The notes beneath the pieces were generated by a model that saw only the letters and a program-made list of their open reading frames with translations, did no database searches and was not told where the DNA came from. DNA of 64,000 nt from Branchiostoma floridae (Eukaryota > Chordata > Leptocardii > Amphioxiformes > Branchiostomatidae), in assembly GCF_000003815.2 (NCBI RefSeq), contig NC_049997.1:3719262-3783261 (forward strand), in the 5' to 3' direction. A program made the translations under genes and the position numbers. Of the stretch, positions 211 to 62,109 are shown one piece after another. Positions within the stretch are counted from its first letter, which is position 1; every line of letters begins with the position of its first letter.

Positions 211-3200
211 CTCCTCCAGTGCATGCATGACCTGATCAGGAAAGTGGTCGGCCATCATGGCGGGAGAGACCAGAATCTCGGAGAAGTCCTCGTTTTTCAC
301 CCAGAGTGCCTGATATCTGGGCTTCATCTTTCCGCACCTGGCCGCAAGGGAAGGGAAAACATTACTGATTTAACTCTCGGTTAAAGAAATGTGAACTGTT
401 TTTGTCTCAGTCACTACTCATTGCTCTTAATCATAACACTCCATAATAGGTGCGTTCTGAAAGCAATCATTGAGTCAATCAATCGCCATTCGGTTTACGG
501 AATTAAAAGAAAATCTTTGTGTGGCTTCATTGCACCATAAGGCCACACCAATTTAATTTCTTGGTTCACGGATTCGCTCGCTCCTTTTTTTTGGAAAAAA
601 AAATAAAAATAAAAATTACCACTCAGCAAATTTTCACCATTAATGAAACCATTCACCAGCTTTCTGGTGTAGCAAATTGGCCTTTATATTATAAGCTCCT
701 TAAAGTGTGGGTACAAATGCTGTTACTGTACAATAATAGTGTTTTTGTACTTTTTTCAAGCTGAAAACTTTTTTTCTTTATGTTTTGGATTAGCCGTTAC
801 CTTTACCCCAACCATTTTACAATTTTTATTTTCATTTTTATTTCGCCCTCTCGCTCCATATTTTTTATGAAAAAATCCGTGAACCAAGAAATTAAATTGG
901 TGTGGCCTAATTGTGACAAGGAAAACCTAACTCTATTGTTCTACTATCTCAGCCTCTGTCATAGAAAATAATGTCTTCTGCTGGTGACTGTTTCAGTCAT
1001 TTTAAAGTATTCATTGTTTTTTAACGACCATAAGAGCTGTCACATCTATTTTGACAGACTTTCCATCTTGAACCAAAGACTTCTTTTTTGCTTGCTAGCT
1101 TTATAAGTCGAATCAACAATTCACACAGCAAACTTCACAGTTATCTCCAATAGTGTGCAGGAATGTACCATTTCTTCCTGGGGTAGGTGCAGATGTACAT
1201 TGCTCCTTTACATCTCGCCCCCCCCCCTCTACTACAACTGCTATGGTACATTCCATACATAAAACAATAGGGTCCTGGAATGTACCACTTCTCCCTGGGG
1301 TGGTTCCTGACCACGTGGATCATCCTCCCAGGCGGGTACAGCTGCAGGTGTTGGGGGATGTTGATGGAGATGGTACTGGCCGACCTACTGCTGAGGTCAC
1401 GGGTCGACTGGGTCAACGAACTCTGGTCGATGTCGGGCATGAGGTACGGGTCACGCAAGCAGCAACATGGCAGACTGTAGGCTATGATCCTCCACTGGTA
1501 AAAAAGAAAAAAAGATTAATTTGGATTTTCTTGGGAGAGCTGCATGTATCTGTGTCTATCTAATAGTATATAGTCAGCAAAACTGCCCTTCTGTGTACCA
1601 CACTAACACTTGCATCTGTATTTACAATCAATTATGAATAACTTTGCATATATAGCTGTAAGCCGTGCTTAAAGCAGTACTTTTTTTTTTTTTTTAAATA
1701 ATTTTTATTGATTTTCAAAGAACATAAAACACATACAAACACATTTATGGCACTTAAATCATAAACAGAATGACACGTGAAAAACTATAGAACTGCATGA
1801 TGATGATTGAAATAAAGTGAAGGTGATGACAAATAAAGTTGTAGAAGTTGTACCCCAATTACCATTGCAACAATACATAATGTATAAGACATATCACATT
1901 AAACATAACCAAGTAATTTTCCCCATTTACCGATATGCTTTTTAACTTTGTCAAGTCTTCTCGCTATAATACCTTCTAATTTAAAATAAAATGAAATATA
2001 CGACGTAAATGAATTCAAACTAATATGTCTGTTTCGGTGTTTGAAAATAAAGTATTTACCTAGCAAAATAACTAAATTGGACAGTACTTAAGTGGGGGTG
2101 GGTAGGGATGAGTTTTTCTCTCGGATATTAAAGCAGATACATTAAACACCTGAAGTCTCAAACTCAAGTCTGAGTTGAGAACTCAGCCTTTATGATCATT
2201 CGACTTTTAGAATATTTCTTGATTCACAAAAAGTGTGAAAAGAAAAAGACAAGGCATATTGTACAATGTCATGTATGTTAGCTACCAGTTTCTCATCATC
2301 AGAATACTCTCCTTTCACTGTTTCAGGACATACCTTAGGATCAGTGCTTCTTTTCAGCATCTTGAGAAGTTCAAACCGGAAATGTTCCATCTGAGGAAGT
2401 CCCATCCTGGAGGGAATGTACATAGACCATTGGATTTCCTTTACAATCAAAAACTAAGTCAATACACTGCGCATACTGATTATGACATCTTATATACTTC
2501 CAAATATTTTGCTCAAGTTTATACAAAAAGTACATTGCATTCCAACAGGTGGTTTGCAAGAAGAGCTATGATTTGCCAAAAAGCAGATACACAAGCAACT
2601 GGATATGATTTTGGTCAGACATTTCAGATAATATCTGCTATCTTTCATCAGAGACACTGAAGATCTTGTTGGAGATCTATGAATAGTTGTTTGCTGGTTT
2701 CTTACCTTGGTACCACATCTTTCCCCACCACAGTTGATGTGATATAACTTCTGCTGGCATCAACTGCTGTTTTACTGCAAAGAAAGGGAAAAAAGAGGGG
2801 AGGTAAATCAAAGTATTCAAAGCTCACACGTTCAGATTATCACCTGTACCAGTTGTTTTGATATAGTTTGTTTCAATTGCCATATGATAATTCTTGATTG
2901 CTACAATATCATAAAAAGTGTGTTTCCCAAACCCATAAAATGTGTTCTGGATTCCTTCAAACCTATTGTGAAAGGCTATTTTGAAAATCACTCTTTGTTG
3001 AAAAGTCTCACAATGTAGTCAGAAAAAAACTCTCAAGGATTCCGAGAAAATACATTGACTGTATTTCATATATTTCATATACTTCAGTAAAAGAAATACT
3101 AAAAATTGCAATTTTTAGCTGTTTCTACAGTCTGCTACAGCTCTTACCTTTCCATTATCTTCTCAGTTATAGTCTAGTGCTAAAATATAGTCTATAGTTA

Positions 3201-6200
3201 CCTGAGCAGACCACCAGGAGGTCAGGTTGGGATATTGCTTCTTGAGCATGATGGCGAGTATCGCCGCTTTTCTGTTTCTGTTTACAGTCTGCCACAGCCC
3301 TTACCTTTCCATTATCTTCTAAGTTAAAGTCTAGTGTATTCTAAGTTCTAGTCTTTTTGGTCTGCATCGGGTGTCCTGACAATGATTTACGCTAAATTCG
3401 GGATGGCTGACTACACTTTACATTAAATTCACGAAGGTTTAATGCTTTACGCTGCATTCCCACTACGAATTACTTAAAATAAAATAGCTTCCCTACGAAT
3501 TACGGGAAATTAAAAATGCCTGCCTACACCTTACAGAAAAGAGCATGCAGTACCTGAGCAGACCACCAGGAGGTGAGAATGGGAAGCAGCGCAGGTTGGG
3601 ATATTGCTTCTTGAGCAGAATGGCGAGGATCGCTGCGGTACCGGCGCCGAGCGAGTGGCCAGAGATGATCAGTCCGTACGGCTCCTCGTCCATCTGCTTG
3701 GAGAAGGCCAGGTCCAGCAGCAAGAGTTCTTCTAGTTTGTTCTTCACATACACGGCTGACTCTAACATTCCCTGCAGGGAGGAAGAAAATGGATGTTGGT
3801 TTGAAGGTATGAGGAACCTAATCAAAAGTATATAGACCAATGGTTAGCAGCCCCTATAACCTCTGACTTGAACTATATGTAGAAGCCATGACATTATGTT
3901 CAATTCTGGCTGTGCTTCCAACTTGTTCTTTTATCATAAACATCTGATTGTAACAAATTACCCTGCATGGAGGAGTAATGGTTATTACCTTATTGAGTTA
4001 GGTAACATGCATAGTTCAGTGGTTTTTGGTCCTGCCTCTGACTAGAAGCCATAGGTTTGATTCCGACTGTGTCACTCACCAGGCATGCACGCTAACGGAC
4101 AGTGTTGCAGTCCATACAATGGGATGTTCATTGTGCAGAAAAGAGCTAGGGTAATTTCCCAAGTACAATGTACCTGACAGGTACATAGTGTCTGTCTTCT
4201 CTGTCACGACCAGTAGAGGAGCTTTCCAGTGAGCTAAACTAGATCGAGATCAATTCACTTTTTTTTGCAGAATGACAGTTGAACCATAAATGAAACCCGT
4301 TATCACAAAATACCTTAACCCAATGTCTTAGATGTTAGTCCTTACCCTGTGTGCATACCAGTCGTGTGGAAAGTCTTCACTGTAGGCCCTGAAGGACTCG
4401 GCATCAGCTGTCAGGTCAGTCAGACAGTCCTGTGGGACATGGCAAAGAAAACATGCAACACTCTTACTACACACAGCCTCGTAAGTAATTGTTATGGCTA
4501 GTAAAGTTACAGTGACTGTCAATAAATAAGATGCTACATGTACATTCTTGGTATATACAGCTTGATAAGTATACTTGTCTGACATTGCACTCATAGATGG
4601 ACCTAAAGCAATTTTTTTTTGAATTATAGTCTAACTTTAAAAAAAAAAAACTTCTGGTAATGATTGTGAATTATACATTCATGTAATTAGCTCAAAGTAA
4701 CAAATTTACTTTTCTTGATACACAGTTTCTAAGTACATGTACTACTAGGTATTATTTACTTCATTTAATCTCTTAAAATCTATAAAAGAAGTTGTTATGT
4801 TGGAGTGGCCTTACCTGAAGAGAGAGTGTGCCCCTGATAGTCACCACTACAGCTTTCCTGTCGTGGTCGATGGACACGAAGAAACACGTCTCATTCACCT
4901 GCAAGGAAGAAACAGTATACGGTCTTATAATTCCATAAATTAAGCAAGAAAGATTACTGACAGGTATCATGCCCATCAATCCCTGGTCATATTCAAGTGA
5001 TCATATCCATCATCATGTTGTTTTCTATTTTGATTTCAGTATTCATTGAAATCAAGCCTACAAACTATTGTATACCACCATACTACAACATGGCAGTAAG
5101 CATTCATTATTAATCATTACAAACTTAAGGCAAACTTAAGGCAACGTAAATGTAGTCCCATGGCCTTTTTTTGCAGCTGTAGGAGCAGTTGGTTGTTACC
5201 AACAATACCCAGGACACAGTATTGGAAGTCAGAGCCAAACCATCTTCTTCCACAGTGCCTTTTATCTCCCAAACCAAAGTCAGGTACCTGTTTAACTCTA
5301 TAGTACAGTACAGTGATGAGTACAGTGAGGAATTGTGAAAAGTGCCTATCCTAAGGCTAAGGACACAAGTTCTCACCAGGAATGCCAGAATTTGAGCCCA
5401 TAACCTCTCGTGTCCACCAGGGTACAACTTGCCATTCAATGCTACCTTAAGTTTCAGAATACAAAAGAGCAAGGTGTGATTTGAGACTTACAGCAGAGTG
5501 GAAGTTGGCGTAGGTGACTTCCGTGTTGTTGAGACCGTAGTTGTACAGAGTCCGCTTCAGGCCGGCCAGGTTACACTGGCAGCAGTTGTCATGTTCCAGT
5601 GTGCATTCATCGTCATGGTTACGGCAGCACTGGCAACAGCAACAGCTGACAAACACAAGAAACAATTATCATAATAAAAACATAATGTTGCAAGTGAGTC
5701 ATTACACTTGCCATGTATGTCTGTCTTTATCTTAAAACAAAGAATCTGAACCCTGCATTAATATTGCTTAATTTCTTAATTTTTAAGAGAAAAGTGCTGA
5801 TAGCTTTTTCATTACCCTAAAGGAAACATTTTACTCTTGATAGTGAACTGATTCTTGCTTACATGCATACTCAGTATGGTTTCATTGAAAGAAAAGTTAT
5901 CTAAAACTTGCAGTACTGCGTCACATATGTGTGTCTGCATGTTTGTGTGAGTGAGCGTGTGTGTGTGTGTATGTGTATGTGTATGCATGTGACAACACAA
6001 TCACAATGTGATATACCTGAACACATTGGTGTACATGTACATGTCCTACCTGCAGAATTTGAGAAGTTGACATGCTCCTGCAGTTGGATGGGTGTAGATG
6101 TACAGGGGCCATCCATACATGTGCGTGTGTGTGTGTGTGTGTATGTGTGCATACGTGCGTGCACGTGCGCATGTGAGATGTCTCACCTGCAGAATTTGAG

Positions 6201-9200
6201 TAGTTGACATGCTCCTGCACCTGGATGGGTGTAGATGTACAGAGGCCATCCATACGCAGCCAGGGCATACCTCATGTAGTAAACAACTTCCTTAAATTGT
6301 TCCAGTATCTCCTGTAAAAAAGAAAAAAAAACCTTCAAGTCTCTTCCTATTTCTTAATTTATCTTGAATTTATCAAGTTTATACAGAGATTGAGTTAAAC
6401 AATGATTGAAAAGAGATATATCTCTTCAACTAAATAAGATACAGACTGAGATAAATTCCGAATGTTTCGAGTGACATCCATCACTTGTCTTCTTTGTCAA
6501 CAGACACTGAAGAAAAGTAATGGATGTCACTTTGAACATTCGGAAGTTATCTCTGCTTTCATGCCGCTGTAGAGATTTTTTGTCTTGAAACAACTTCAAC
6601 TTGATCTGTAATTCATTTACTGTGCAATTCATTGAATTCAATGTTTTAAATGGAAGAACAATTGTAATAGTAACAAATAACTGTTGAATTTAAAGAAAAA
6701 CTGACCGGGCGACTGAGCTGTACAAACTTGGTGCGGGGGTTGATGGGTACTCCTGACAGGAACTGGTAAGTGTCGTTACTGTGCTGTAAGGGGATAAACA
6801 TCAACAGCAAAACATTAATGTTACAACAAAACATAGCTCATTCTTACATGTATCTCAAATTCAATGAAGGAATGATAGAAAATATCCATGTTGCAACTAC
6901 ATTTGTTTACGTTTGTTTATCAAATTCTAATCAATGAACTCAATGTTTAGTACTAGATACATTGATGAACAATATCAACACATCATGATAGTGCAGAAGG
7001 ACCAGTGGACAGGCTAATGCTGACTCAGCGAAAAGACCTCAAAATGGTAAAACGCTTTTTTTCTGATGCAATAGAGACGAGTTGCAAAATAGTGTGCCAG
7101 CTTATGCCGCCTGGTGTCAAAGGTATCCACCCATAAGTTGGCAAAGATTAATGCAAAGTAGAAGACCTTTCCAAAACAGCACAACCCCCACCTGTCCAAC
7201 GATCATTTGGTCGCTGATATTTCTGCTGCTGCTGCCAAAGTTGGCAAAGAGTAACATAAAGTTCATTATGATTTTTCCAAACAAAACAGCCCCAATCCCT
7301 AAATACCTTTTTTCCCAAAAAAAGGAAGGATATGCACGTACAAAAGTATTAAAAGTAACGTTCAAGGCAATTTTCAGAACACAACAACCCCACCTGTCCA
7401 ACGATCATTTGTCGCTGATGTTTCTGCTGCTGTCGGAGAAGAACCAGCCCAGCGACCACGTCGGACGGCACCAGGTCAACATCGATAAAAAACTCGGACA
7501 GCAGGTGGGCTATCTCCTGGAAGGCATGCTGCAGATAGGGGATAAGAAAGATACAATCATGTATTTATACTTCTTTCACTAAGTCTTAGTCCAAGTACCA
7601 AAGTCATAATTTAAGTGATGATTAATTAAAATTTGCAAGAAGAAAACATGAATGCAAGACTCAAAGTAATGTGCCCCCACCACATTACATGTGGCCTACC
7701 CTGGAAACCAGACTTTTAGCCAGGGCTGGCAGAGAATACAGTCATGTATGTTTGGCTGCCAAGGCATGTCTTCCCAAGTACCATAGATGAGCACACCAGG
7801 GATTTGTCATGCAGGGAGAGTTTACCCGCCAAGCTAGAGTGTGTGACGGACTGGGAATTCTTTTCTGTCCGATTGCAAGCAAATTTCCGTCCCAGACCTG
7901 AGGGACAGGTCCTGGGGCCAGCCCTGATCTATTATGATCATGATAAGTGCCTTTAGCATCCAGCTCCCCACCTGTTGATTGTCCTGCACCCCCGCGCAGC
8001 AGCACAGCAGTTTGCACCTGTGTTCCCAGCTGGCTTCATAAGCCTCCATGGTGAGCCTGGGGGGAGGGGGGGCAGGGACATGTATGGAGCTTGAAACTTA
8101 TAATGCTTTCTAAGTTCAATATTTGACAAGATTCTATAATGCTAAAAAGGCCACTTTTTTAAAAACCCAAACTAATTCAACAATGCACATAATTTGCTGA
8201 ATTAAGGTATAATGTAAAATGTACATCAAGATGGAAAAGATCTCTATATATTATACATATATCAAACAAGCACAACTTGGCATTAAGTTGACAAAGTAAG
8301 CTGAAGTTTAAGAATAAATAATTAACAATAACTATACAAAAAATCTTCATGCAGACACAAGAGGATCTTGTCATAAAAAAAATAGGCCACGTTGATTTGA
8401 TTATATGGATGAGAACTGGCAATACTCAAAACAATGGTAATTGGTCAATTTTGCTACAAAGGAATCTGTTTGGTGGATTATTGGACTCCCACTGCATTTT
8501 AAAATCCCATCTCCATGTAATAAAGGCTAACTGTCTCTGTACCTTTGACTGAAGAAACTTGGTGCAATTGACTACACTCTACTTGACTTTGCTCTTGTTG
8601 AATTCTTGGCCCCCCGGTTAGACCCCAAATGGCTGCCGACATAGTTTTTCCATTTTGTAATTGGCGAAACCTGTTCCTCTGTTTTTTTTCAGGTCTGTTT
8701 TTTTCGGATTGGTCCAAGACGAAAAAAAATGTATTGCACTCGTATGATGTACTGGTCCCTACACCTAACTGTTGGTATACCATACTATGTGTGTTTAGTC
8801 CTATGTTCAACCTTCCTGGCCACTTTGATTTCATACTGAAGGCAACTTTTTTTTTTGGCCAAACTTTTTTTTTATTCGCTCGCTCGCATCAGTTTTGGAG
8901 TTCCCGGAGGATGTCATCCATATAATCAAATCAACATGGCCTTACATGTAGAAGATGTGACTGGACCTTTTTTTATTCTCAACATAACACACAAAGGAGA
9001 AAGTTGAAGACAAATAAGATCCTCTTTAATCATTTATAAGACTTAGTCCTTGAAGATAAAAGATAGGACCAAACTAGCAAACCATGATAAAACACCTTGC
9101 AATCATATACTAGTAAGAGGAAGGAAAAACTGTTAAACAATGTGTTTAGTTGTAGTAATGCCATGATAGCAGTCTGTAGTTAGCAGCAGACCAAAGCGGT

Positions 9201-12200
9201 TATGCAAAGTATAAGTAGCAAGAAAATGGATGCTGTTACTATGGCAACAAATGCAACATCAAAAAGTTATGACAGAGATTATAGTAGATTATAGTGTTTT
9301 GAAAAGCCCCTTAGTCATGAAACGATAATTGTAATTCCTAATAGTATGTAAAATAGTAGACCTTGTTGAATAAGATACAGCAATAATTGATTACCATGAA
9401 AGCATCAAGCATCTGAGGAGGGACAAGGCTTTGGAGTTTGCTTTTAAGGCTCACACTTAAGAAAAGGAATAAATCTCCTTTAAAATAGATGTGCTAACGA
9501 TGTATACAGAACATAGCATTACTGTACATAATCTTGAGCAGTCTTTCATGGTGTTCTATGTAGATGACTTTCACAGTTACTGTGACAATGACTTTCATAG
9601 TCACTGAAAAACAATAGTTTTTCAAATGGGAAATTTGCTGCAGCAAAAATGACTTTGAGGGATTTTTGAAAGCTATTGGAAAAGGCTTGAGAGCTAGTCT
9701 GACAAATTCAAAGCCTCTTGAAGTACTATTGAAAGAAAGAGTTTTAAACGAATATTTGCTTTAGTTGCAAAGCAAGACTGCTACTGGCAGCTGCTTGAAG
9801 AAGATTTAAGCTCATGTGAAAGAAATTTTTAATTTCAAAAGAGTAGTTGTAAAGAAATACAGTCTAATATGAAATTTGTCCTTCAGATTAAAGCCAAGAA
9901 AAAGTCAGAGTTGAGTAATGGCTATGTTTCAAAGTCAACGTTCAGAATCTAGAAGAATAATTCAGAATACACCATGCACATGCACCACCACAACACCGAC
10001 GTGAGCACGTATCGTGCCTTCACCTTTGCGTGACTTTCGTCCTCCAGACATGTGTGTCGGTACGTTTGATCTCTCGCTTGCAGCGTTTCAATTTCACCCA
10101 ATTTCTGCCCGCGGTGTCGAAAACGCACCACGCGGTGATAAGTACCGAGAAGAAGATGACCCAATCACAGATTATGATGCCTATATAAGGGTTGATATAC
10201 GGGAAAGATGGTGAGTTATATGTTTACTTGTGTTACATGACTGTGTAAAGTTGGGAGTGATGGAGGAATAGCCGTTGTCTTGAAGTGATGAAACACCTGT
10301 AATGTGACTGATTAGTAATCTTGGTAGATTAAAATAGAATTATACTTTCTACAGGTTTTCGTGGTAATATTGGGTTTTGCATCTTAAGGCCACACCAATT
10401 CAATTTGTTGGTTCTCAGATTAAAAAATAAGATATGCTTTACTGAAACATAAAACATAATGAAAACGAAGCTTGAGGAATAAGTTTATGCCTTGGTGCAC
10501 TCGCTTTCATGGGCTACTGGGTACATTTTCAGCACAACTTATCCAAGAACTTCAAAGAATCTGTATTGGTGTGGCCTTAACATGTGTTCCACTTGAATTT
10601 CTGCTTCCTTGCCTGCTGTATTTGGCTTTGTAAAGTTAGAGAAAAAAAATTCAGCAAATGTATTAAGGGGCAGCAGCTTGTGGTGTACATGTTACAAAGT
10701 GTTGTTAAAGGTGATGACAATACACACAATCCAGTGGCAGCAAACTGCAGCAACATTTGTGTAACAGTCTGCAACAGCAAACACGGCGGTGGCTGATGAT
10801 GTTAGTTTAAATCGCAACAGTGGTGTAGACAAAATGCCTGGCGCATTGGCACCCCTTTTCATCCACAATGGAACGATCCACCCAATGGGTGGATTGTACC
10901 ATTCCTGCTCGGTGAGGGGAGACCTGACCCACCTCTCTTGTGGTTCTCTGCAGGTGGCTATGGTGAAGAGTGCTGCCAAGCCCTGTAGGACCAGCTTGGA
11001 CCAGTAAAAAACACCTCCCCCTAAGATGTTTGAGGGTGTTCAGAAGGCGAAAGAAGTTTGAAGAATGCAAAGACATTGTATTTCTTTGATAAGAACATAC
11101 AAGTACATGTATATCAGCTTGAATGTGGAATAACGTGTACAAGGTTCAGATCTATAACATTGTAAAACATGACAAATCATACACGATGTTGTCCTTTTCG
11201 ATCTCAAAAAAACATCTTCCCCTAGAATGTTTGGAGGTGTTCATCAGAGGATGAAGGAAGGTTGAAGAATGCAAAGATATCGTATCTTCATTTTTTTCTG
11301 AAACGATCATACACACAGTCCTATATCAGCTTGATGTGGAATAACATGTGCAAGGTTCAACTATCACAAGGTATAACATCATGACAAAGTCACATACGAT
11401 GTTGCTCTTTTCCAAATTAAGAGTTCTAGTCACTATTACCCAAATGAAGTCCATGTTTGAAAACACAAAGAGTTCTACATTTCAATAATAACTGCATGAC
11501 TGTACAATATACATGACACAAGGAGTGGACAGCACGGGACAGAATGGTTTTCTAAAATGTGTAATAGAACAATAGAACTAAGACAGTCACTGTAATGTTG
11601 AAATGAATGATAATTTCATCAGCCATACACTGTATTTCTGATTCATAGCATTACAATTGCGAATGGTATAATTACAATTGCGTATACTAATTGTATAGAT
11701 AAGCTGGTATGAGAAAAATCACTTTCCTTACACTTTAAAATCATGAAAATCTGTGATTGATAAAATAAGTCTTACCCAGTACAGATTTCTTGACCATGTT
11801 GCTAGGGCAGTCGTTGTAGTGCTGTATGATCCACACCACTCCCACCACCGACCACACAAACTCAACCAGCAGGATAACTGAAGAATAAAATACAAATAAA
11901 GAAGGTTTCCTTCTCCTGTATAATGCTAGCTCACCTTTATCTGCAAGGTAACCTATATTCTGTTGTTTTTAAAAACATGATTTAGGGATGTTAAGTTGAT
12001 GGATGGTAGTTTCAAACAGCAATTTTTCAAAAATATTGCAATTTAAACCACCAACCATTGACTTGATAATCCTAAACACCCTGTTCTAAACACAACAGAT
12101 ATACCGGTAGGTTACTCCATGGATAAAGGTGAACTAGCATTATATATTAAGGGAAATTTTACATTTTTTGGTTCTTAAGATAAACATCATTTCCTTACAT

Positions 12201-15200
12201 AGTACAATGTTAAACTTTCAAATTTCCAACAACCACAGTCACCTTCTTCAGGCTCAATACTGATGTAGTAATGCAGAGATACACAATTGTACTCACCTAG
12301 CCTTATGTACAGCAGATATTGCATGGGATCCCTGGGTTCCGTGTATAAGATACTGCCCTTCATGGCGACCCACACAACACACCCCTCCACCAGGATACAT
12401 GACGTCAGGATAACACGTCTTACTACATGTCGTGACTAGTCTTACATTCAGTATCAACACACTCACCTAGCCTTATGTACAGCAGATATTGCATGGGATC
12501 CCTGGGTTCTGTGTAGAGGATACTGCCCTTCATGGCGACCCACACAACACACCCCTCCACCAGGATACATGACGTCAGGATGACCAGGTAACCCAGGATG
12601 TGCGTGTGGAACAGCCTGCAGTCGTTCACGAAACCCTCCTCCACTATACCCAGGATAACCGCCATCACAATCAACCTGCGGAAGGAAAAAAAAGAACATC
12701 AGATCTCAGGTCTCAGACAATTATGACGAAAAAAAGGTAATTCCATAACCTTCTTTTAAGGCTGTATGCAGGGGTAGTGGGTTGTCAATTAATATGAATA
12801 TGAACATAATACACTTTATGGTGTCAAAACAGCAAGCAGTATTGGCGAGTCAGGGAAGAGGCCTATTGTTATACAATTGCCCAGAAGTTCCTTGATGTAT
12901 TCATCAAGTGTTTACTTCTAGTAGAACATCTATTTCAACCTCTGACTTTCTGTTGGCCTTTCCCTCGATAAATTCTACCAGTTTATACTCCACACAGCAC
13001 AAAGGAATCAAATACTCTTGTCAGCTACCAAGATTTATAAGTCGATAAGAAACCTCCTTTCTTTCAGACTACTGCATTAGATCATTGGGCAGGAATGCGC
13101 CCTGTGAACACAGTAACCTTTCTGATTCAAACACTGCCTTGCCAAACACAACCTCTGCACAAGAAGCCATGTCCCTTTGGCCTGGGACGGAAATTTGCTT
13201 GTTTGGAACAGAAAAGTGTCCGCCCCAAAAGTCTTAACTTATGGAGATGAAATTGATGAAAATGTAGATCTAATTAATAGCAAAAACTACTACTGGTAGT
13301 AACAACAAGTAGTTCAAACAATTAATGAGTTGGAGAATAAAGCATTAGGAACTGGAGACAGCTCTGTTTGGCACATTAATTCATCAGGAACTAACAAATA
13401 CATGACTTTGTGTACTTTTCAAAGGTCAATTTTGTCATGGGTTGCTTTTACTTACAATTTTGATGATTTGTTGGATAATTTCAAGTAAGTAGTAACAGAA
13501 TCAGTTGCCTATATGAGGATCTTCGAAAGCTTTTTCCTTAACAAAACAGCTTAATTTTGCAGGACATAATGTACAACTATCCCAGAAATGCCTTCAGTTT
13601 GCAACTATATGATGCACAATTTACTGTATACTTAAAAAAGCACCCTAACATAGCACTGTAGTCCTCAATCTTATGTCAACTTGAAAGAATGGACTTTGTG
13701 ATAACTTGTGATTGTTACACATGAGTCAATTATCCAGCGTTTCAGACTTTCCATGGAACACACAAGGTTGAATGCACACGATTTGACCTCTACGACCTGT
13801 GCTGTGAACTGTGGTATGAGATCATTATCAAACATAATGGAACAAGGGGTCACTGACCTGTGTACGTGTTCATAATGTCAATAAAAATCAATTATTATAA
13901 TCCTCCAAATATTTGTACATCTATTGAATTCCAGATATACAGTCAAACCTGCCCGAGCGACCACCTCTTCTCAGCGACCACCTGGCCATTTCGACCGCTT
14001 TTTCTCGGTCCCGATTTATTTTCCCATTGACGTAAGCATTAAGCGACCTTTTCTCAACGACCACCTGGTCAACGCGACCGCGACCGGCCCAAATTGGGAC
14101 CCATAACGACCGCATCATTTTCAAAATTGAGGTTTTCATCGATTTTTGATGATAACTAGCGCGATTTTGTGCCGAAATCGGCCAGTTTGCGTCGGATTTT
14201 GGGGTTCGATTTACAGTTTACAGTGTGCGTGTTGTATTTGACATTACAGACCTCGCTTCTTTGCGTGCGTGCTGTTTGCTTGCTATTTGCCATTTAACAT
14301 CACGGAAATCATTTAAACTTTGCATCGGGCATGTNNNNNNNNNNNNNNNNNNNNNNNNNNNNNNNNNNNNNNNNNNNNNNNNNNNNNNNNNNNNNNNNNN
14401 NNNNNNNNNNNNNNNNNNNNNNNNNNNNNNNNNNNNNNNNNNNNNNNNNNNNNNNNNNNNNNNNNNNNNNNNNNNNNNNNNNACGTTTTTTCGGTCCCCG
14501 GCCTGGTCGTCTTGGGCAGGTTTGACTGTACAGGCAATTATTACAATTTTCAAGGTGATTAAAAGAACGTATAGTCGTGCATAATCAAGAAAAGGTCCTT
14601 ATAGTACTTGTTTTACAAGAACAGCTAACCTTGTACAATGCTAGTTCACCTTTATTTGTGGGGTAACCTACATGTATATCCGCTGTATTTAGGGATTTCA
14701 AGTCAATTAGCAGTGGTTCTTAACTGCAATATTTCCAAATCATACCAGTCCATCCATCGACTAGCGTTAATCATACAAATATTTTGTCTTCCAGTTTTTG
14801 TGTCTCTCATGACTGTGAGCCTGAAACCTTTTGTACATGCAAGTTATTATTTTTTTTTTACCTTACTTGAAAACATTAAAATCTAATGTTCTTCCCAGAT
14901 TTAATATTCGTACGAGGATAAACAGAACTGAACTGTTCTGCCAATGAACTTCACAAATCAAAATTTGTCTGAACCTTGTTTCTGATCCACACATTTTCTT
15001 CTGCATGAGAAGCAGAAATACAAATTTGACATTCAAAATCAATTTCCACATCATGACCTGAACTTTAAAGGAGAAGTGTCAAAGGAAAGTGACAATTAGA
15101 ATACGGAAACAAGGAATGTCAGAGTCAATGGAAGGGACTGGTGGTTCAAGAGATCCAACCTTTTCTAGCAGGCCAAAACAGATTTAGTATTGTTTCCAAG

Positions 15201-34189: not shown

Positions 34190-34820
34190 GGCCATGTTGA
34201 TTTGATTATATGGATGACATCCGCGCTCGCACCAATTTTCGGCCATTTCCAAAAAAAAAAAGTTTTCAACCACACAATAAATTGTGCAAAGCAGCTGTGA
34301 AATGAGCACAAATATTCCGTAGATTGAAAAGAAAGTATCAGAAAACAGATAACTAATCATAGTCTAATGCCATAGAATGCCAAAATAAATCTAAAGTCAA
34401 AGAAAGGACAGGAAGACTTCTGTACCTTTGACTGTAGAAACTTGGTGCAATTGACTATAAACTCTACTTGACTTCCTCTTGTTGTCTTCTTGGCCCCCGG
34501 TAAGACCCCAAACACCTGCCGACATAGTGTGTCCATTTTGTAATTGGCGAAACCTGTTCCTCTGATTTTTTTCCAGGTCTGTTTTTTTCGGATTGGTTCA
34601 AGAAAAAAAAATGCCTTGCACCCGTACGTACTGGTCCCCACACCTAACTGTTGGTATACCATACTATGTGTGTTTAGTCCTATGTTCAACCTTCCTGGCC
34701 ACTTTGATTTCATACTGGAGGCAACTTTTTTTTTTGGCCAAACTTTTTTTTTATTCGCTCGCTCGCATCAGTTTTGGAGTTCCCAGAGGATGTCATCCAT
34801 ATAATCAAATCAACATGGCC
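34190..34820. mobile_element. Harbinger-like MITE 4
   Basis: Near-perfect inverted ends GGCCATGTTGATTTGATTAT continue into ATGGATGACATC. TAA flanks both sides. It is a longer relative of MITE 2. Open frames inside both elements are by-products of this homology, not genes. Confidence 0.85.
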
Positions 34821-42427: not shown

Positions 42428-45400
42428 ATGGAAAACCATCAATCTACTATGTGGACAGTTTCTGAAGACAGCCATCATATCCTGCACACAAGGCTTGAAA
42501 ACCTGTGGTCCTTTCTCCAGTCCAAGTCTGACCTCATCAATGCACATCTTGTAGACTTCTTCACAGAAGACACGTGGGACAGACTGGTACCTAAGGATCT
42601 TCAAGACGAGCTACTGTCTCTTTCTGATCCTGATCTTTCCTCCTTGCCAAGTTCAACTACACTTCAAAGGAAAAGAAGTCAAGCAACAGAAACTGAAGAC
42701 GACAAAGAAGAACACAAAAATACTCTTTTGTTAAATGAAAGTACAGATCTAGACTCTAGCATAGGCAATGCAAAAGCTACAGAAAACTTTTGTGGCAAAT
42801 GTGAGTGTGAAAAGAGTCAGTCATCTCTTGAAGAGTTTAGAAAAGAAGCTCAACAGTTTGTGTTAAGCAATTCAGGGATCTGTGCAAGTCTTGATGAAGT
42901 TTGGAGGACACTTGGAGTTGACTCTAAGTCTAAGGATGAAGACAAGCGGAGATTTGTTAAGGAGCACATGTGTGTGAAGAAGTCTCATGAGGTGGAGGTG
43001 TTGTCAGGAGTGGTGGCTAAGCTGTGCCAGGTGTGTCACGTAGATCAGGTGAGAAGCATAATTGTGTTGTTCATGCATGCTTTTTGTGTTGAAAAAAATG
43101 TAACATCCAATGGCTACATGTACCTCTTGAAACAAATAATGTACAAGAAAACATTTATAATACAATAGAATTGATTTATCAAATTTAATTATTTAGTAAC
43201 TTTGTTGTTTAGAAAAAGTAGGTTGCAGTCTGACGTCAGTTCAAGAGCTTAAGTCTAGTTTTGAAGTCCCTAGAATACTACTTAAGTAGTCAGCAAGTTC
43301 AGAAGCTCAAACATTTTTGTTTAAGAGTTAGTCAGTATAAAAGACAATATTATGAACATTTTTTCTGTATTCTACCATTCCGTACTATTAATCTGTCTCA
43401 GCTCCCTAGTATGATTGCTTCCAGTCAAATGACTTGTACTTGACACTTGTTATCCATACTTTATTTAGGTGGTAGACATTGGTTCAGGTAAGGGCTACCT
43501 GAGTGAGTGTCTATACCTGCAGCATGGACTGACTGTATTGGGGGTGGATGCATCAGACTCAAACACTCATGGAGCCAAGAAGAGAAGCAAACTTCTGGAG
43601 AGACAGTGGACTGCATTGGTCAACAGACCAAGAACTTCTGCTAATAAGGAATGTATCAATGACAGTGAACCAATCAGGGAAGTTGTTGAAAAGAACAGTG
43701 AGAGTGAAGTAGCAGGCAAGGAATCCTGTTCTACAGAACATATAGGTGATGCAACACAGCAAGAAGTTAGCAGAGAAACTACAACACAGAAGCAGACAAG
43801 GTGTTCAAAATCTAAAGACAGGGTGAGCAGTAAACAAGGATCCTTTACTCCAACAACAGCCTATATCAACCCTGACACAGACCTGGCTGATTTAGTTGGG
43901 GTTAGCAACAGTGATGAAACTCTAGCAGATTTGAGAGTGAGTATCAATGACTTTCTGTGATGTCATGATATCATTATGACATTCAAAATTCCTTATCTTT
44001 GTTTTTGTTTTTGCCATATAGTAGAAAAGTAGATTCATTTATAAATTCTCACCTGTGATCTCTTTCTTGTAGCTTTGTTCCCCATACCTTGCATTGTCTT
44101 GCAGTGCTGCCCCTTGTAGCATCTTGTGGTGCCACTCCTTTTTGTGACCTGACCTTGGTTCTCTGTGTACCAGTTGTTACTGACAGGTCTGCACACATGC
44201 GGTGACCTCTCCCCCACCATGCTGCGCCTATTCGTGACCTGTCCCCAGGCTGCAGTCTTGTGCAGTGTTGGGTGCTGCTATAACCTTCTCACAGAGGTAG
44301 AGAAGCCAGGTACTTGATTCTTTTATTACCCACGCACTGTCGATACACGATCTTTTTTGCTTAGCTTAGATATCAATGGAGGTCAAGACTGCAGTGACTT
44401 CCAACTTTTACTTGTCTTTTAGAACATGTGCTAGGCTCAAACCTACAGCTAGAAACAGTGATAAGATTACCTGTGTATAAGAAGTGGATTCAGAAGTTAA
44501 GGGTGACAAATTGACCAGCTAGCCTTGAAAATAAGGGATTAAGTTCAATCTTTATGATAGAAAAAAATTAAGCTGGAAACAGCCTTTCTTTAAAGTACAT
44601 ACCAATGTATGTCCAATGTAAATAAAAATTTTACCCCAATATTATATTCTGATAGGTGCCAAAGAGGAGAAATATGGTTTCCCTCTGAGCCAGCTCTTAC
44701 AGAGACGATGTCATGTCTCTGTTTATGTTTATGTTATGTTATGTATGGTTATATGTTATAATTTTTACAGGTGCTATAGATGAGAAGTGTGGCTTCCCCC
44801 TGAGCCAGTTGTTACAGACCAAATCTGTCCATCTGGGCCGTACAGCGCGCATGTTGTCCTGCCAGGCTGTGGAGAGGATTAGTAGAGAGGGTCGGCTCCC
44901 CGCCATGTCCCTGTTCTACAGAGCTGTGCTGCAGGTTATCGTCAGGGACAAGTTTGGGCATGTAGACAAGTGAGTGGCACCAGCAATTTTTTTTGTAGTT
45001 TCAATCGTGTGGCTTATAATGTCTCTTATTTCCAGGGTAGAAGCTTTGCCTGCAACTTTAAGCTGTTGAGATTTGGGTTCTTTTTTTAGTAACTTAGATA
45101 TGAGTTTTGGAGGTAAAGGCAAAGGAAAAGTTACTCCCATAGTCTTTGAGGCTTTTTTGAGTCAGTTATCCACTGTGTCTATAGGGCACGATATTTGATG
45201 TGGAGTCCATCCGTCTCCTTGCACTGCCTTTTACCTCCTCAACTCAATATATTTGTAACAATGTAATCAATGTGGTAATGATCCAACTACTATTAGGATT
45301 GAAAAAAGGATCTATTTTCTTTCTTTTTTCCTTATAGCAATAAAACAGTTGGAAAGGTGGCAGCGAAGAGTAAAGGCTTTGTGGACTATGTGAGACGAGC

Positions 45401-46633
45401 CCTGAGGAGACTACAGTTGGAACATGCACACCTGTCTGATGAGGAAATCAACAGATATTTTGAGCAGTACCAAGGAAAACTGAGACATCTACATGCATTC
45501 ATACAGGTGATTTACACATAGTTGAACATACAAGAGCATGCTCCAGAAGCAGACACTCCCTTACACTGTACTAGTAGGTCTTTGACAGCAAAACCAAGCC
45601 AAGAGTGCACTACCTTTTGATTCAGCTTACTTAGGAAACACTGGAAATTTAATTTAATCATATTTAGGCCACAGCAAGTAAATTTTATGGATGACATCAG
45701 CGCGCGCATTAATTTTCGCCTGATTTCAGAAAAAAAAAGATTTTTTTTCTTCTTGGGAGATGGTCAACGTGCAGATAAAGTACCAAAATGGGCAAATATG
45801 TTGAGTTATAGGCTAATGGTTGTACTTGTAGAAGTAACACTAGCCAGGAGGCCATGACTGTAGTTATAGAAGTGAAACTAAAAATTTAGTTAAATAGTTG
45901 TAAAAGTGGCCCCAATATGGAAGCCATGGGTGTTGTTGCCATGTTGGTAAGTGACACCAGTGTACCACACTAGTGTCACCTTTACCACGTCTTGAATACA
46001 GAAATGAATGCCTTGTAGGCTGTGATACCATGTTTCGTCGCTTCGATTCTTTTTTTGTCACGTTTAGTGCGTATATATGGAAAATTTAGCCATCTTGTTT
46101 TTTTTTTGCCCTATCTCACTATTTTTGCCGTCTACAGAGGATGTCATCCATAAAATTTACTTGCTGTGGCCTTATGAATTTATACAGTTACTATGTATAT
46201 TGTGACAGAATTATTATATAATTATGTTAGAAATAAGGATGTGTGATTAATTGCACAAAACTAGACTGAACATCCAGACTGACAGAAAAATGAAGGGCTT
46301 CTTACAATTAGGTGCCTTTCAAATGTGAGAAATGGCACTCCACATCATACAATACATACAAGACATGACTGTAAACTACACTGCATTTGGTGCAGGGAAT
46401 GATTACTTGTTTTATTTTATATATTTTTCATTCTTTTGCAGCTACGTGCCTGCCTTGCACCTTGCATAGAAGCCTTCATCCTCCTGGACAGGCTGTGCTT
46501 CCTGCATGAACAGACAGGGGTCTCTCATGCTGCACTGGTCCATGTGTTTGATCCTGTGATATCTCCAAGATGCTTTGCCCTTGTGGCCATCAAGAATGAC
46601 TGTAATATTGTAACTTCTCAGGAAAATGTCTGA
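42428..46633 (+). CDS. METTL25: METTL25-type probable S-adenosylmethionine-dependent methyltransferase
   Basis: Six exons with GT-AG borders: 42428-43048, 43469-43936, 44174-44309, 44771-44969, 45338-45506 and 46442-46633. They give 594 residues, close to human METTL25 at about 600. The N-terminal NAHLVDFFTEDTWD block matches the family start. Exon 2 opens with the SAM-binding motif I, VVDIGSGKGYLS (residues about 208-219), followed by GVDASDSNTHGAKKR. A variable acidic/Ser-Thr stretch follows. Exon 3 carries GLHTCGDL and VGCCYNLL, exon 4 NARM-like GRTARMLSCQAVERI, exon 5 FVDYVRRALRRL, and exon 6 LAPCIEAFILLDRLCFLHE and SPRCFALVAIK. The biochemical substrate of METTL25 is not something the sequence shows. 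Exon 3 is placed at the CAG before TTGTTACTGACAGG because only that choice keeps phase. Convergent with the NTase-TPR gene. Confidence 0.93.
44651..44715 (+). repeat. Truncated copy of METTL25 exon 4 (acceptor plus 5' part)
   Basis: The sequence from the TAG acceptor through about 55 nt of coding-like DNA (GAKEEKYGFPLSQLLQ) mirrors the start of exon 4 at 44771 (GAIDEKCGFPLSQLLQ), 118 bp upstream of it. After that it diverges. It is too short to replace exon 4 and has no clear donor, so it is most likely a degraded tandem duplication across the acceptor. Confidence 0.75.
45667..46171. mobile_element. Harbinger-like MITE 5 in METTL25 intron 5
   Basis: Perfect inverted ends of about 32 bp (GGCCACAGCAAGTAAATTTT and on to GGATGACATC), with TTA on both sides. 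It shares the GGATGACATC subterminal motif with MITEs 2 and 4 although the outer termini differ. It lies inside an intron of the methyltransferase gene. Confidence 0.87.
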
Positions 46634-47369: not shown

Positions 47370-50300
47370 TTAGGATGCCATGTTTCTATCGTTAATCATC
47401 TGCTTCATTTTTGCTGCTTCATTGAAATATCCGAGGGCTTTCCTGTAATCACCAAGGTTTTCCCAGGCAATACCTAAGTTCTTAAGTGACATGACAATGA
47501 TAGGATGTGGTGTGTTTTCACCATAGATACTCTGCATCATCTCCAGTGACTGTTCATAATAATTGACTTCCTTTCTGTACTCTCCAAGATTCCCATAAGC
47601 GGCACCCAAGTTGAGAAATGAGCCAGCTATGTCAGGATGTGCAGTGTTTTCACCGTACATGCTCTGTTTCATTTTGAGTGACTGTTCATGATAGCTGATG
47701 GATTTTCTGTAATCGCCAAGCTGCGCCCAGATGGCACCCAAGTTGTTAAGGGAGTTATAAATGTCAGGATGTACAGTGTTCTCACCATGGATCCTCAATT
47801 TCATCTTCAACGACTGATCAAAATAGTTAAGTGCCTTTCTGGGATCACCAAGGCTTCTCCAGTTAGTACCCAAATTGTTAAGTGATACGGCAATGTAAGG
47901 GTGTGCGGTGCTTTCACCATAAATACTCCGATACATCCGCAGTGTCTGAGCATTATAGCTGATGGCCTTTTTGTAATCATCCAGGCCGTTCCAGGCAGCA
48001 CCCAAGTTATTTAGTAACATGGCAATGTCAGGATGGGTGGTAGTTTCGCCATAGATACTCAGCATCATCTCTAGTGACTGTTCATAATAACTGACAGCCT
48101 TTCTGTATTCTCCATGGTGGCTGCATGTTATACCTAAGTTTTCAAGTGTCTTAGCAATGATAATATGTGCTGTGTTCTCACCACAGATACTTTGCATCAT
48201 CTGTAGTGCCTGTTTATGATAGCTGGCGGCCTTTCTGTAGTCACAAAGACCTCTCCAGGCGACACCCAAGCCGTTAAGTGACATGGTAATGTTAATATGT
48301 GCTGTGGTCTCACCATAGATACTCCGATTCATCTGTAAAGACTGCTCAAAATAACTGACAGCCTTTCCATAATCACCGAGGCCATTCCAGGTAGTTCCCA
48401 GGTTGTTGAGTAATGCGGCAATGTTGTGATGTGGTGTACTTTCACCATGAATAATTTGTATCATCTGTAATGACTGTTCATAATATCTAACGGCATTTCT
48501 GTAATTACCAAGGTTGTTCCAGGTGGTAGCCAGGTTTGAAAGTGACTCCACAGTATCGGCATGTGCAGTGCTCTCACCATGGATACTCTGTCTAATCTTC
48601 AGAGACTGTTCATGGCAGCTGAGAGCCTTTCTGTAATCGCCGAGGTCACTCCAGTCCTTACCTAGAGTGGCAAACTCTGTTGCAATTTCATTGCTTTCAC
48701 CATGGATGCTAAGCATCATCTGTACTGACTGTTCCTTGTAGCTAAAAGCTTTCTTGTAGTCGTCGAGCTGTTCCCATGAGGCAGCCAAATTGTTGAGAAC
48801 TGAAGCTATGTCAGGCTGTACACAGTTGTCGTCGTTGATACTTCGCAACATTTGCAATGACTGTTCGTAATAGGTAATTGCTTTTCTGTGATCACAGAGG
48901 GAGTTACAAGAAACACCCAATCTAACAAGTAGAATGGCAATCGTAACGATACTAGCTTTCATTTGCCTTGATTGCACATGATAGCTGATTGCTTTTCTGT
49001 GATCGCCCAGCTTGCGACAGGCGTCTCCCGAGTTGATAAGACAGGCAGTCACGTCGGTATCACCACATAAACTCTGATGCATTTGGAGTGACTGTTCCCA
49101 ATAGCCAACGGCCTTTCTGTGATCACCAAGAGCAACCCAGACGTTTCCCAAACTGTTGAGTGATTCGGCAATGTCCGAATGTGCATCGTTCTCACCATAG
49201 ATACTCTGTCTCATCTGTAGTGACTGTTCCAAGTACCCTATGGCCTTTCTGTGATCACCAAGAGCACTCCAGGCGTTTCCCAACTTGTTAAGTGATTCGG
49301 CAATATCCGAATGAGGAGTGTTCTCACCATGGATACTCTGTCTCATATGTAGTGACTGTTCCAAGTACCCTATGACCTTCCTGTGATCACCAAGTTCCCC
49401 CCAGACTTTTCCCAACTTGTTAAGTAATACGGCAGTGTCGGAATGAGCAGTGCTCTCGCCATCAATACTCCGTCTCATCTGTAGTGACTGTTCATAATAT
49501 CGGATGGCTTTTCTCCGATCGCCAAGAATACACCAGGCATCACCTAAGCCACGTAGTGATAAGGCAATTTTAGGATGGCTCGTGTTTTCACCATGGATAC
49601 GGCGATTCATCTGTAGGGACTGTTCATAATAGGCGAGAGCCTGTCTGTTATCACCAAGGCGTAACAAAGAGACGCCCAAATGAAGATAGCATTCAGCAAT
49701 TTGAGGATGGATACTGTTTGCACCCAGAAACTGCCGATATATGCTAAGCGACAATTCAAGGCAGGTGACAGCCTGTCTGTCATCACCAATCTCGCTATAT
49801 GCGTCACCCAAGCACGTAAATGAGAGAGCCCTGCTAATCTGTGCAATCTCACGAAGCTCAACATCGCTGGAACTCAGCCGTAGTGACTGTTTATAGCAGT
49901 TGATGGCCTTTTCATGGTCACCTAGGCTGCTATGTGCCTGACCCAGTTGAAGAAATGAAAAGGCGATTTCTGATTTCGTAACGCTCTCTCCAGACAGACT
50001 CAGCATTATACCCAGTGATTGCTCGTAATAGCTGAGGGCTTTCAGGTGATCACCAAGAAGGGTGTAGGCGTTGCCCAATTTGGAAAGCGACTGGGCAATG
50101 TCACGATGAGGAGTGTTCTCACCATAGATACTTCGCCCCATCTGCAAAGACTGTCCATAGTAACTGGCGGCCTTTTTTAAATCATGACGTTCGATCCAGA
50201 CGTCGCCCAAGTCGTTGAGAGACTTTGCAATATCGGGATGTGCAGTACTCTCATCATAAATGCTCCGTCTCATTTGAAGTGACTGCTCGTGAAAGCTGGT

Positions 50301-50893
50301 GGCCATTTTATAATCACAAAGGCTTAACCAAGTGCCGCCCAACATGCTAAGTAACTCTGCAATGTTTAGATTTCCAGTACCTTCAGCGTCGTCAGACAGA
50401 GCCCTTTGTAATGCTCGCTCTATGCATGTCTTTGATTTTTCGTAATCAGACATGTAATCGTACATCGATTTCTGTATGTCCATACCTAAGTATTTGTCAA
50501 AACAATATAGCAGCTCTTCCTCCAGTGGCACTCTGCGGACAAGTTTTGAGATGAACTTCTGTAACGGCGCAGCTGTGTAATAGTATCTCAAGAGTTGGTT
50601 TGTATTTGAATAATGAAACACCTTCTGCAAGTCTTTGTCAGTGTTTGGACCTGCAGCTGTCGTCATCTCCGATAACGCCGACATGTGTTCCGCTTGACCA
50701 CGGTTGTTCTTGTATGCCCGCAGCCTCAGTTCTGCAGAGATGCTGACCATTACCATCAAATGATGTGCGTTCTCACTACTGATGACTCCGTTCTTATTCA
50801 TCTTTTCAATAGTCTCCCAGATTGTGGTAGGCTGAATGTCACACGAGAGTGCCCAGCAACAGATTGCAAGACTTGAAAATCGATAGATATGTT
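47370..50893 (-). other. Array of 23 tetratricopeptide repeats
   Basis: Downstream of the gap the frame is open from the last N to the stop at 47370. The first part ([10 protein letters not shown], then [10 protein letters not shown] and AELRLRAY) looks like the helical end of the nucleotidyltransferase region. It is followed by 23 TPR units with the pattern [27 protein letters not shown] and linkers like [13 protein letters not shown], as in kinesin-light-chain or nephrocystin-3 type TPRs. Neighbouring units are often very alike (units 8-10 and 19-21), which suggests growth by internal duplication. The Met at 50801 is internal, not a start. Confidence 0.88.
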
Positions 50894-53800: not shown

Positions 53801-54948
53801 GAGCGGCGCCATTGAGTCACCTGACATTTGCAAATAGCGCCCAGATCTACGACTTTATAAACAAGCTCAGTGTGAAAAAACACATAAATTTAGAGCAGCT
53901 TTTACATTTTGATATCTGTGGAATCATGCTCTGTGAAGAGCCATACTTTGAATGCATATCTTGACATTGGAACGTAGAGCGTATAATATTACAACATTTA
54001 GCTTTGAACATTATAGTTTTTCCTGTCTGACGACTTGACAACGCTATCAACGGGCTAATATCGGCATGTGTGATTACTACCTTATGTATGATTCTCGATT
54101 AAAGGTGTATTAAGTCATTAAGCACCAAATGATTAGAATATTTGATGGCAGAAAATATGCGTCTAAAATCAATATTCACAATATTCATCATTAAACATAC
54201 AATGATGCTGTAACCCATGGCACATGCTAGGTTAAGTGTCTATACCTGAAAGTAAAGGGTTGTGCTGCTCTATAGACACGCCTGGATGACTGTCTCCTTG
54301 TCTCGTATTATCATTCCGGGGTGGAAGGTGAGACTTCTCAGTAGAATATGGCTCCTCAGAAGACGGTTGTGTCTCCTTGGGAAACGGTTGTGTCTCCCTG
54401 GGAGACGGTTGTGTCTCCTTGGGAGTCGGTTGTGGCTCCTTGGGAGACGGCTGTGGCTCCTTGGGAGACGGTTGTGTCTCCCTGGGAGACGGTTGTGTCT
54501 CCTTGGGAGACGGTTGTGTCTCCTTAGGAGACGGTTGTGTCTCCTTGGGAGACGGTTGTGGCTCCTTGGGAGACGGTTGTGGCTCCTTGGGAGACGGTTG
54601 TGGCTCCTTGGGAGACGGTTGTGGCTCATTGTGAGACAGTTGTGGCTCCTTGTAAGACGTTTGTGACTCTTGGAGAGACAGTTGTTGCGGCTTCTGATGA
54701 GATTCCTTCATGGGGTAGGCATGATCTAAAGGCGACAAGATTGGAGGCATAAAATGGTTTTGCAAGAGATTTTATCCACATTCAGAATGAAGTTCATGGA
54801 GAAACAAGTGTCATGCGGCGGTTAGAGCATTCAAAACTAGCCGGACTACTAACTTGAAGAAGAAGAGAGCGGCGACGCCGGCGAGGAAAGCTAGGACTGG
54901 ACTTGATACACATTTGTCAGGACGAGGTATCAGAGACGCTCATCCGTC

Positions 54949-61215: not shown

Positions 61216-62109
61216 TAAAAGGTGACTTTTTACCCTGTGTCGTCCTATACAATTCTTCACAAATGTTATAAATGCAAGCATGTACACACGGTTTCTCAGT
61301 TCAACATGTACTCTGCTCTTCAATATAGAGGCTATAACATTCCTGACACAACAACGATTTTGGTGTTTCCGCCTCTTATTCTTACTCAGCGCTTATGTTT
61401 ATGCTCACGGAACTGTATATGCAGACAAAACAATATAACGTTATGCCATCGTTGTATCAATGCATTAGTTTATGATGATAAGAGACTTGCTAATTCAAAT
61501 ACGTCACTTCAAAGCATCATATTATTTAAGTGAATACAGTGGCCGCTATTCAAATCCATTTCTATTTCAGCATTCAAGATACAATGGCCAGCATGACTTT
61601 GACTTTTGATCTGTTATATAGCTTATATGATTTGCTTTTTCCCAAATTGAGACACTGTCTCACTGTCCCAATGTCTCTGGAGTCATAGAATGTACGCACA
61701 TATGTCATATAAGTTGTCCTTCAAAGACTCAAACTTGCACGCTCGATATCTTTCTTAGATACGCTTTCAGATCGTTCTTGCAGTCACACATAATATCTGT
61801 CAAAACAAATATCACCCCAAAACTGAGGCTGAATTTTTTCACATACACATCCAAGTCACTCACCCATGATAAGAGAGCTTAAAATGAAAAAAAAACTGAT
61901 TAAAAGATCCTTGTTCGGATGTATAAGTACGACGACTTTAAAGTTTTGGGGGTTGATTGCATTCTTCACATTGTACAGACACCAGAATATGGCGCGTAAA
62001 CAAATGTGCATTTTTTTGTCTCAAATATACGCACATATCAACTCTCAAACACAAACTCAAAATATTCTTTCCCAAAGACATCATATTCTTTGATACAGCA
62101 GACATCTAT

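What the first reader, a model, noticed from the sequence alone, without database searches (positions are those of the whole stretch)
1150..12675. Five DAGL exons each have a truncated 3'-edge copy, with its splice donor, in the next intron
Exons ending at 12467, 7394, 6187, 3554 and 1286 are each followed in the sense direction, within 110-360 bp, by a partial copy (12291-12411, 7180-7233, 6050-6119, 3202-3267, 1150-1185). The copy includes the exon's last 16-115 nt, the GT donor and some intron. All five lie downstream and all five carry the donor; no acceptor-side copy was seen in this gene. The likely cause is tandem duplication across donor sites, which is neutral because the first donor still works. 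The repetition in one gene suggests either a duplication-prone genome or a process tied to exon ends, such as templated repair from splicing products. The spare donors could also affect splicing.
Basis: seen in the sequence. Interest (0 to 1): 0.75.

Follow-up and report, generated by a model that had tools for sequence, protein, structure and literature searches.

The report
Duplicated exon edges in lancelet DAGL gene
Five exons of a lancelet diacylglycerol lipase gene carry a decaying copy of their end in the next intron; such tandem "mirage" duplications are already described in lancelet genes, and in a sample of other genes they were no more common at exon ends than in ordinary intron DNA.

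Summary
In the DAGL gene (minus strand, 15 exons modelled) the exons ending at 12467, 7394, 6187, 3554 and 1286 each have a direct partial copy 117-352 nt downstream. Shuffled sequence gives no such pairs. Donor-only is not general: the neighbouring methyltransferase gene has an acceptor-side copy.

The kind is known. Tandem repeats across exon-intron boundaries in amphioxus are called "mirages" (PMC3087553; PMC3902484).

In the window's own genome I sampled 107 exons of SLC6, myosin and CCT genes. Of 214 exon edges, 9 were spanned by a short-range tandem duplication; 9.5-10.5 were expected from the non-coding background of the same loci. Five were donors, four acceptors (row strands). So no process tied to exon ends is needed: a duplication-prone genome suffices. 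DAGL looks rich (5 of 6 events on an edge, rotation P 0.017), but it was chosen because it looked rich. Splicing effects could not be tested; a full genome scan was not possible.

The parts
12461..12584 (-). DAGL exon end with donor (exon 12675-12467), source of copy 1
12291..12414 (-). copy 1: 118 nt of exon end plus donor GTGAGT, 97% identical; spacer and following intron unrelated; 4 substitutions in 3 codons, amino acids unchanged when whole codons are read
7371..7432 (-). exon end (exon 7528-7394), source of copy 2
7168..7231 (-). copy 2: 39 nt exon end, donor and intron start; 1-nt insertion; related intron also at 7293-7240 vs 7188-7137
6170..6255 (-). exon end (exon 6311-6187), source of copy 3
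6034..6118 (-). copy 3: 69 nt exon end, donor GTGAGA changed to GTAGGA, about 17 nt of intron; CA-rich sequence follows on both sides
3551..3636 (-). exon end (exon 3771-3554, Lipase_3 match), source of copy 4
3119..3267 (-). copy 4: 83-nt exon end with 17-nt deletion, donor CAG|GTAACT, then duplicated intron (3354-3278 vs 3193-3119); the spacer holds about 200 nt with no counterpart after the copy
1265..1304 (-). exon end (exon 1494-1286), source of copy 5; weak donor
1148..1188 (-). copy 5: 19 nt exon end plus 21 nt intron; retention up to it would be in frame (117 nt, no stop)
11006..11412 (-). purely intronic tandem duplication of similar kind (offset 201, 75%)
44753..44818 (+). acceptor and start of the exon beginning at 44771 in a methyltransferase gene (Methyltransf_32 in an earlier exon; METTL25-like by recall)
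44639..44703 (+). acceptor-side mirage: copy of the acceptor and about 48 nt of exon start, 114 nt upstream, 79% identical

Best explanation
These are amphioxus 'mirages': short tandem duplications (unit about 100-200 nt) that happened to span an exon-intron boundary. The genome makes short tandem duplications often in non-coding DNA. Those that cross a splice site are tolerated, because the original site still joins the exons. The intronic copy then decays by substitution and indels while the true exon is held by selection. Shown: the copies, their tandem nature in three of five, decay in four (codon-level amino-acid changes, indels), no excess at exon edges in a sample, both sides affected. 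Inferred: neutrality, normal splicing, the species, and replication slippage or unequal exchange as the DNA mechanism.
For: Copies beyond chance. Spacer related to the intron after the copy at 7394, 6187 and 3554. Decay: 17-nt deletion in copy 4, 1-nt gaps in copies 2 and 5; 9 synonymous and 6 non-synonymous single changes, which fits a constrained exon plus a free copy (P 0.11) better than all change in the copy (P 0.005). Sample of 107 exons: 9 of 214 edges spanned vs 9.5-10.5 expected. Sides 5 donor, 4 acceptor (with row strands). Rates follow each gene set's own background: SLC6 6 of 60 edges vs 8.2%, CCT 3 of 94 vs 5.0%, myosin 0 of 60 vs 1.5%. Published mirages of both boundaries in globin genes, with differing copy number between haplotypes (PMC3087553 section 16), and splice-site repeats in PGBD5, where Sanger and Illumina data were rechecked (PMC3902484 passages).
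Against: Within DAGL 5 of 6 events sit on an edge (rotation P 0.017; donor 0.003), more than the general model predicts, though chosen after the fact; with a stricter rule (8 nt on both sides) only 3 of 30 DAGL edges count, against a background of 8.3% that includes the copies. The neighbouring gene has 1 of 12 edges spanned against 1.2%. Copy 1 is 97% identical over exon plus 6 intron nt, yet its spacer is unrelated to what follows the copy, so it is not a simple two-unit tandem; a repeat dispersed through the genome begins about 32 nt after its donor (12265-12218). Species and splicing were not shown here.
Confidence: 0.88

Rival explanations
1. Assembly artefact: the two divergent haplotypes were both kept, so the end of an exon from haplotype B follows intron sequence of haplotype A.
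For: Amphioxus is very heterozygous (PMC3087553 passage). Copy 1 is 97% identical and keeps the amino-acid sequence. One published mirage appeared aberrantly assembled in the draft (PMC3087553 supplementary legend).
Against: Copies 2, 4 and 5 are 76-89% identical with frame-breaking gaps, unlike functional alleles; no N gap lies beside any DAGL copy; the spacer and following intron of copy 1 are unrelated, where alleles should align; PGBD5 repeats were rechecked in raw reads by others.
Confidence: 0.06
2. A process aimed at exon ends (repair templated by splicing products, or R-loops at donors) makes the copies.
For: All five DAGL copies are on the donor side; donor rotation P 0.003.
Against: No excess at edges in 107 other exons; 4 of 9 spanned edges are acceptors and the neighbouring gene has an acceptor copy; copies continue into intron; duplications that touch no modelled exon edge are common.
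Confidence: 0.04
3. The copies are functional: spare donors or part-exons that regulate DAGL splicing.
For: Spare donors equal the true ones at 12297 and 7192 and score higher at 3202 (7.3 vs 5.0); copy 5 would add 39 amino acids in frame.
Against: The spare donor at 6050 scores lower than the true one (9.5 vs 11.4) and 1169 is as weak as 1286; use of the other four would add 1-7 stop codons; copies 2 and 4 are frame-broken; PMC3087553 and PMC3902484 say that mirages in globins, Adh3 and TnC do not disturb splicing.
Confidence: 0.05

Closest known systems
Amphioxus "mirages" in globin genes BflGb6 and BflGb9 (PMC3087553, section 16 read; named for Adh3 by Canestro et al. 2002, which is not held and is known here only through that paper)
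   Same: Direct tandem duplications of an exon-intron boundary, unit about 150-160 nt in globins, on either the 3' or the 5' exon edge, with splice signals in many copies
   Different: BflGb6 has 3-6 copies at 81-100% identity and differs between haplotypes; DAGL has one extra copy per site, at five sites of one gene, 76-97% identical; polymorphism not tested here
PGBD5 60-bp and 108-bp tandem repeats overlapping splice sites in lancelet (PMC3902484, passages read)
   Different: More copies; copy number differs between two lancelet assemblies
Intron gain by tandem genomic duplication (PMC4974935 and PMC3443670, search listing only)
   Same: Internal gene duplication that copies splice signals
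   Different: No new intron is made here; the original intron simply holds a copy

Membership tests
amphioxus mirage | direct tandem repeat spanning an exon-intron boundary | tested here: met
   tandem unit shown in three of five, copies 1 and 5 only partly
amphioxus mirage | unit length in the published range (10-160 bp, PMC3087553) | tested here: inconclusive
   offsets 117, 136, 170, 203 and 352 nt; the longest contains a stretch with no counterpart, the others are in or near the range
amphioxus mirage | both exon boundaries can be affected | tested here: met
   acceptor copy at 44639-44703; sampled genes 5 donor, 4 acceptor
amphioxus mirage | normal splicing uses the original site | not testable with these tools
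   no RNA data; the 15-exon join is open
amphioxus mirage | copy-number polymorphism or somatic instability | not testable with these tools
   one assembly only; the copy 1 region has one full-length match among the scored candidates in the genome
amphioxus mirage | host is a cephalochordate | not tested
   genome G000 is unnamed, 513,431,437 bases; Branchiostoma floridae is inferred from recall of assembly size and repeats
diacylglycerol lipase (DAGL) | class 3 lipase domain with GHSLGAGTA motif in the spliced protein | tested here: met
intron gain by tandem duplication | duplication creates a new intron inside a former exon | tested here: not met
   copies lie inside introns of the modelled gene; coding frame unchanged

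The most novel reading that the evidence does not exclude
Some genes, DAGL among them, attract tandem duplications to their donor sites, for example through replication stalling at R-loops over exon ends, so that a per-gene or per-site hotspot exists on top of the genome-wide duplication rate.
Probability: 0.06. Interest if true: 0.6.

Novelty: new member of a known kind. Interest (0 to 1): 0.22.

Why it matters
It adds one gene with five mirages, a second gene with one, and up to eight sampled exon edges with such copies (a ninth, L031, is a repeat-rich case), and gives a rough rate: 9 of 214 exon edges, no more than the intron background of the same loci. If that holds genome-wide, splice-site duplication in amphioxus needs no special mechanism, and its supply of spare splice sites for intron gain follows from a high tandem-duplication rate. 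It is also a warning for gene annotation in this genome.

Tried and rejected
Rejected: chance similarity; an exon-end-specific mechanism as the general cause; retro-copying or splicing-product repair (copies contain intron, are adjacent and in direct orientation); whole-exon duplication (only edges copied).

Corrected on the way: the donor/acceptor split of the SLC6 loci (4:2) treated every locus as forward; loci are in contig orientation, and with the row strand L024 is acceptor-side, so the split is 3:3 (one search shows the spanned edges; its own label for L024 is also wrong, because both strands had one stop). Several exon borders of the methyltransferase gene were off by 1 nt; the donors were corrected, so the donor scores are not used. 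L027 and L031 were listed as exonic; on inspection L027 looks intronic and L031 is a GT-rich repeat; L031 stays in the 9 of 214 count because the background was counted by the same rule. L076 overlaps its exon by 5 nt only. The L023 copy lacks the donor and the L078 copy has lost its GT. In one search two changes in one codon were scored singly: at copy 1 CTC to TTA is synonymous as a codon though scored as one N and one S.

Limits of the sample: exon ends are ends of profile matches (12-nt slack, also given to background points); some loci overlap, so part of the background is counted twice; unlabelled exons lie in the flanks; the SLC6 and myosin genes include related neighbours; L001-L008 (lipase, 0 of 8) were not; L009-L012 are not exon samples. 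In the window only two genes were annotated. Families PF00067 and PF00225 were asked for once each and never answered.

Led nowhere: a positive control on the published globin mirages (family PF00042) was asked nine times and never answered. Canestro 2002 is not held (with a wrong DOI from memory, by its PMC id).
Full report
What was checked. The finding says that five exons of a DAGL gene on the minus strand each have a truncated copy of their 3' edge, with donor, in the next intron. I rebuilt the gene: 15 exons with AG/GT borders join into a single open frame, and the open frame around the exon 3771-3554 matches Lipase_3 (E 1.4e-7).

Beyond chance. At the score used (>=40, offset 15-800) the window holds 56 direct pairs in 20 segments; five sets of dinucleotide shuffles gave none. 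Direct pairs outnumber inverted ones 48 to 6 within 600 nt.

Anatomy. For 7394, 6187 and 3554 the sequence between exon and copy is also related to the sequence after the copy (0 of 500 shuffles as good), which is what a tandem duplication of [exon end + donor + intron start] leaves; at 6187 this rests on a CA-rich stretch. At 3554 the spacer holds about 200 nt without a counterpart after the copy, and directly after the donor only 3 nt are shared. At 1286 the copy covers 19 nt of exon and 21 of intron (P 0.004 for the intron part). Copy 1 (12467) is different: 118 exon nt and GTGAGT at 97% identity, but the spacer and what follows the copy are unrelated (P 0.3). A 48-nt stretch of a repeat dispersed through the genome begins about 32 nt after the copy's donor (query 436-483, window 12265-12218), so later rearrangement is one possible reason; I did not resolve this.

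Age. Copy 4 has a 17-nt deletion and copies 2 and 5 have a 1-nt gap in the exon part. Scored singly, 9 of 15 substitutions are synonymous. If all changes lay in a free copy 3.9 would be expected (P 0.005); if the exon accepts only synonymous changes and the copy all, the fit is acceptable (P 0.11). This agrees with functional exons and decaying copies; it does not prove it.

Not donor-only. The gene at 42.4-46.6 kb (methyltransferase domain Methyltransf_32, E 1.1e-7; METTL25-like by recall) has a copy of the acceptor and about the first 48 nt of its exon starting at 44771, lying 114 nt upstream (44639-44703 vs 44753-44818).

Other genes of the same genome. I sampled exons by family search: SLC6 (30 loci cut of 103 matches listed), myosin head (30 loci cut of 142 matches), and 47 exons of eight CCT gene regions (of 60 matches). 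By the plain listing, 7 of 30 SLC6 exons (two of these, L027 and L031, not convincing on inspection), 0 of 30 myosin exons, 3 of 47 CCT exons and 0 of 8 lipase loci had a tandem partner. By one automatic rule for edges and background alike, 6 of 60 SLC6 edges, 0 of 60 myosin edges and 3 of 94 CCT edges were spanned, against background rates of 8.2%, 1.5% and 5.0% (7.0%, 1.5% and 4.7% if pairs touching an edge are left out). Pooled: 9 of 214 observed, 10.5 or 9.5 expected. Using row strands, the nine are donors L023, L037, L042, L078, L079 and acceptors L016, L024, L031, L076.

DAGL itself. Of six short-range duplications in the gene at this score, five cover an exon edge. Rotating them round the gene gives 2.1 on average and five or more in 1.7% of rotations (donors only: 0.3%). 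Tandem Repeats Finder adds short-period arrays off the edges that this test leaves out; they would weaken the excess. With a stricter rule (8 nt on both sides of the edge) 3 of 30 DAGL edges are spanned against a background of 8.3% that includes the copies themselves, and 1 of 12 edges of the methyltransferase gene against 1.2%. DAGL was picked from a long sequence because it looked striking, so this is weak evidence of a local excess.

Splicing. Scored with a small matrix from 15 other donors of the two genes, spare donors equal the true ones at 12297 and 7192, are lower at 6050 (9.5 vs 11.4), higher at 3202 (7.3 vs 5.0), and uninformative at 1169, where both are weak. Using the first four would add 1 to 7 stops; using 1169 would insert 39 residues in frame. 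No RNA data were available.

What is known. The globin paper PMC3087553 (section 16 read in full) reports minisatellite-like tandem duplications of exon-intron boundaries in BflGb6 (acceptor side, 150-160 bp, six and three units in two haplotypes) and BflGb9 (donor side, 157 bp), says they were named "mirages" in Adh3, and says that the data suggest no interference with splicing. The PGBD5 paper PMC3902484 (passages read) adds 60- and 108-bp repeats over splice sites, cites troponin C, and reports that reexamined Sanger and new Illumina data confirmed the sequence. In the lists I saw from my searches (three of them cut at 12-20 rows) there was no survey of how often mirages occur genome-wide; most subscription papers are not held.

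Verdict. A real feature, correctly seen, of a known kind. The exon-end-specific reading is not supported by the sample; a duplication-prone genome plus tolerance of boundary-crossing duplications accounts for it.

Noticed in passing
window 44639-44818: Acceptor-side mirage in the methyltransferase gene, mirror image of the DAGL copies.
   Followed up: yes
window 8384-8942 and 34360-34820: Two related stretches (similar translated open frames) of a MITE-like element; the first is bounded by a 29-nt inverted repeat.
   Followed up: no
window 45666-45698 and 46140-46172: Perfect 33-nt inverted repeat about 440 nt apart inside an intron of the methyltransferase gene, like a fold-back or MITE.
   Followed up: no
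window 12265-12218: 48-nt dispersed repeat just after copy 1; 41 further matches listed in the genome, of the best candidates scored.
   Followed up: no
window 47438-50380: Long array of 132-nt units that reads by eye as TPR repeats on the minus strand.
   Followed up: no
window 54349-54685: Sixteen copies of a 21-nt unit, open on the minus strand as a [11 protein letters not shown] repeat.
   Followed up: no
window 62107-63659: 298-nt satellite-like array reaching an assembly gap at 63660-63890.
   Followed up: no
L024 1717-2847 and L016 1126-1540: Acceptor-side arrays with several overlapping repeat pairs in SLC6 genes.
   Followed up: partly
myosin loci L043-L072: Fewer tandem duplications of any kind (background 1.5%) than SLC6 (8.2%) or CCT (5.0%) loci; cause not studied.
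   Followed up: no
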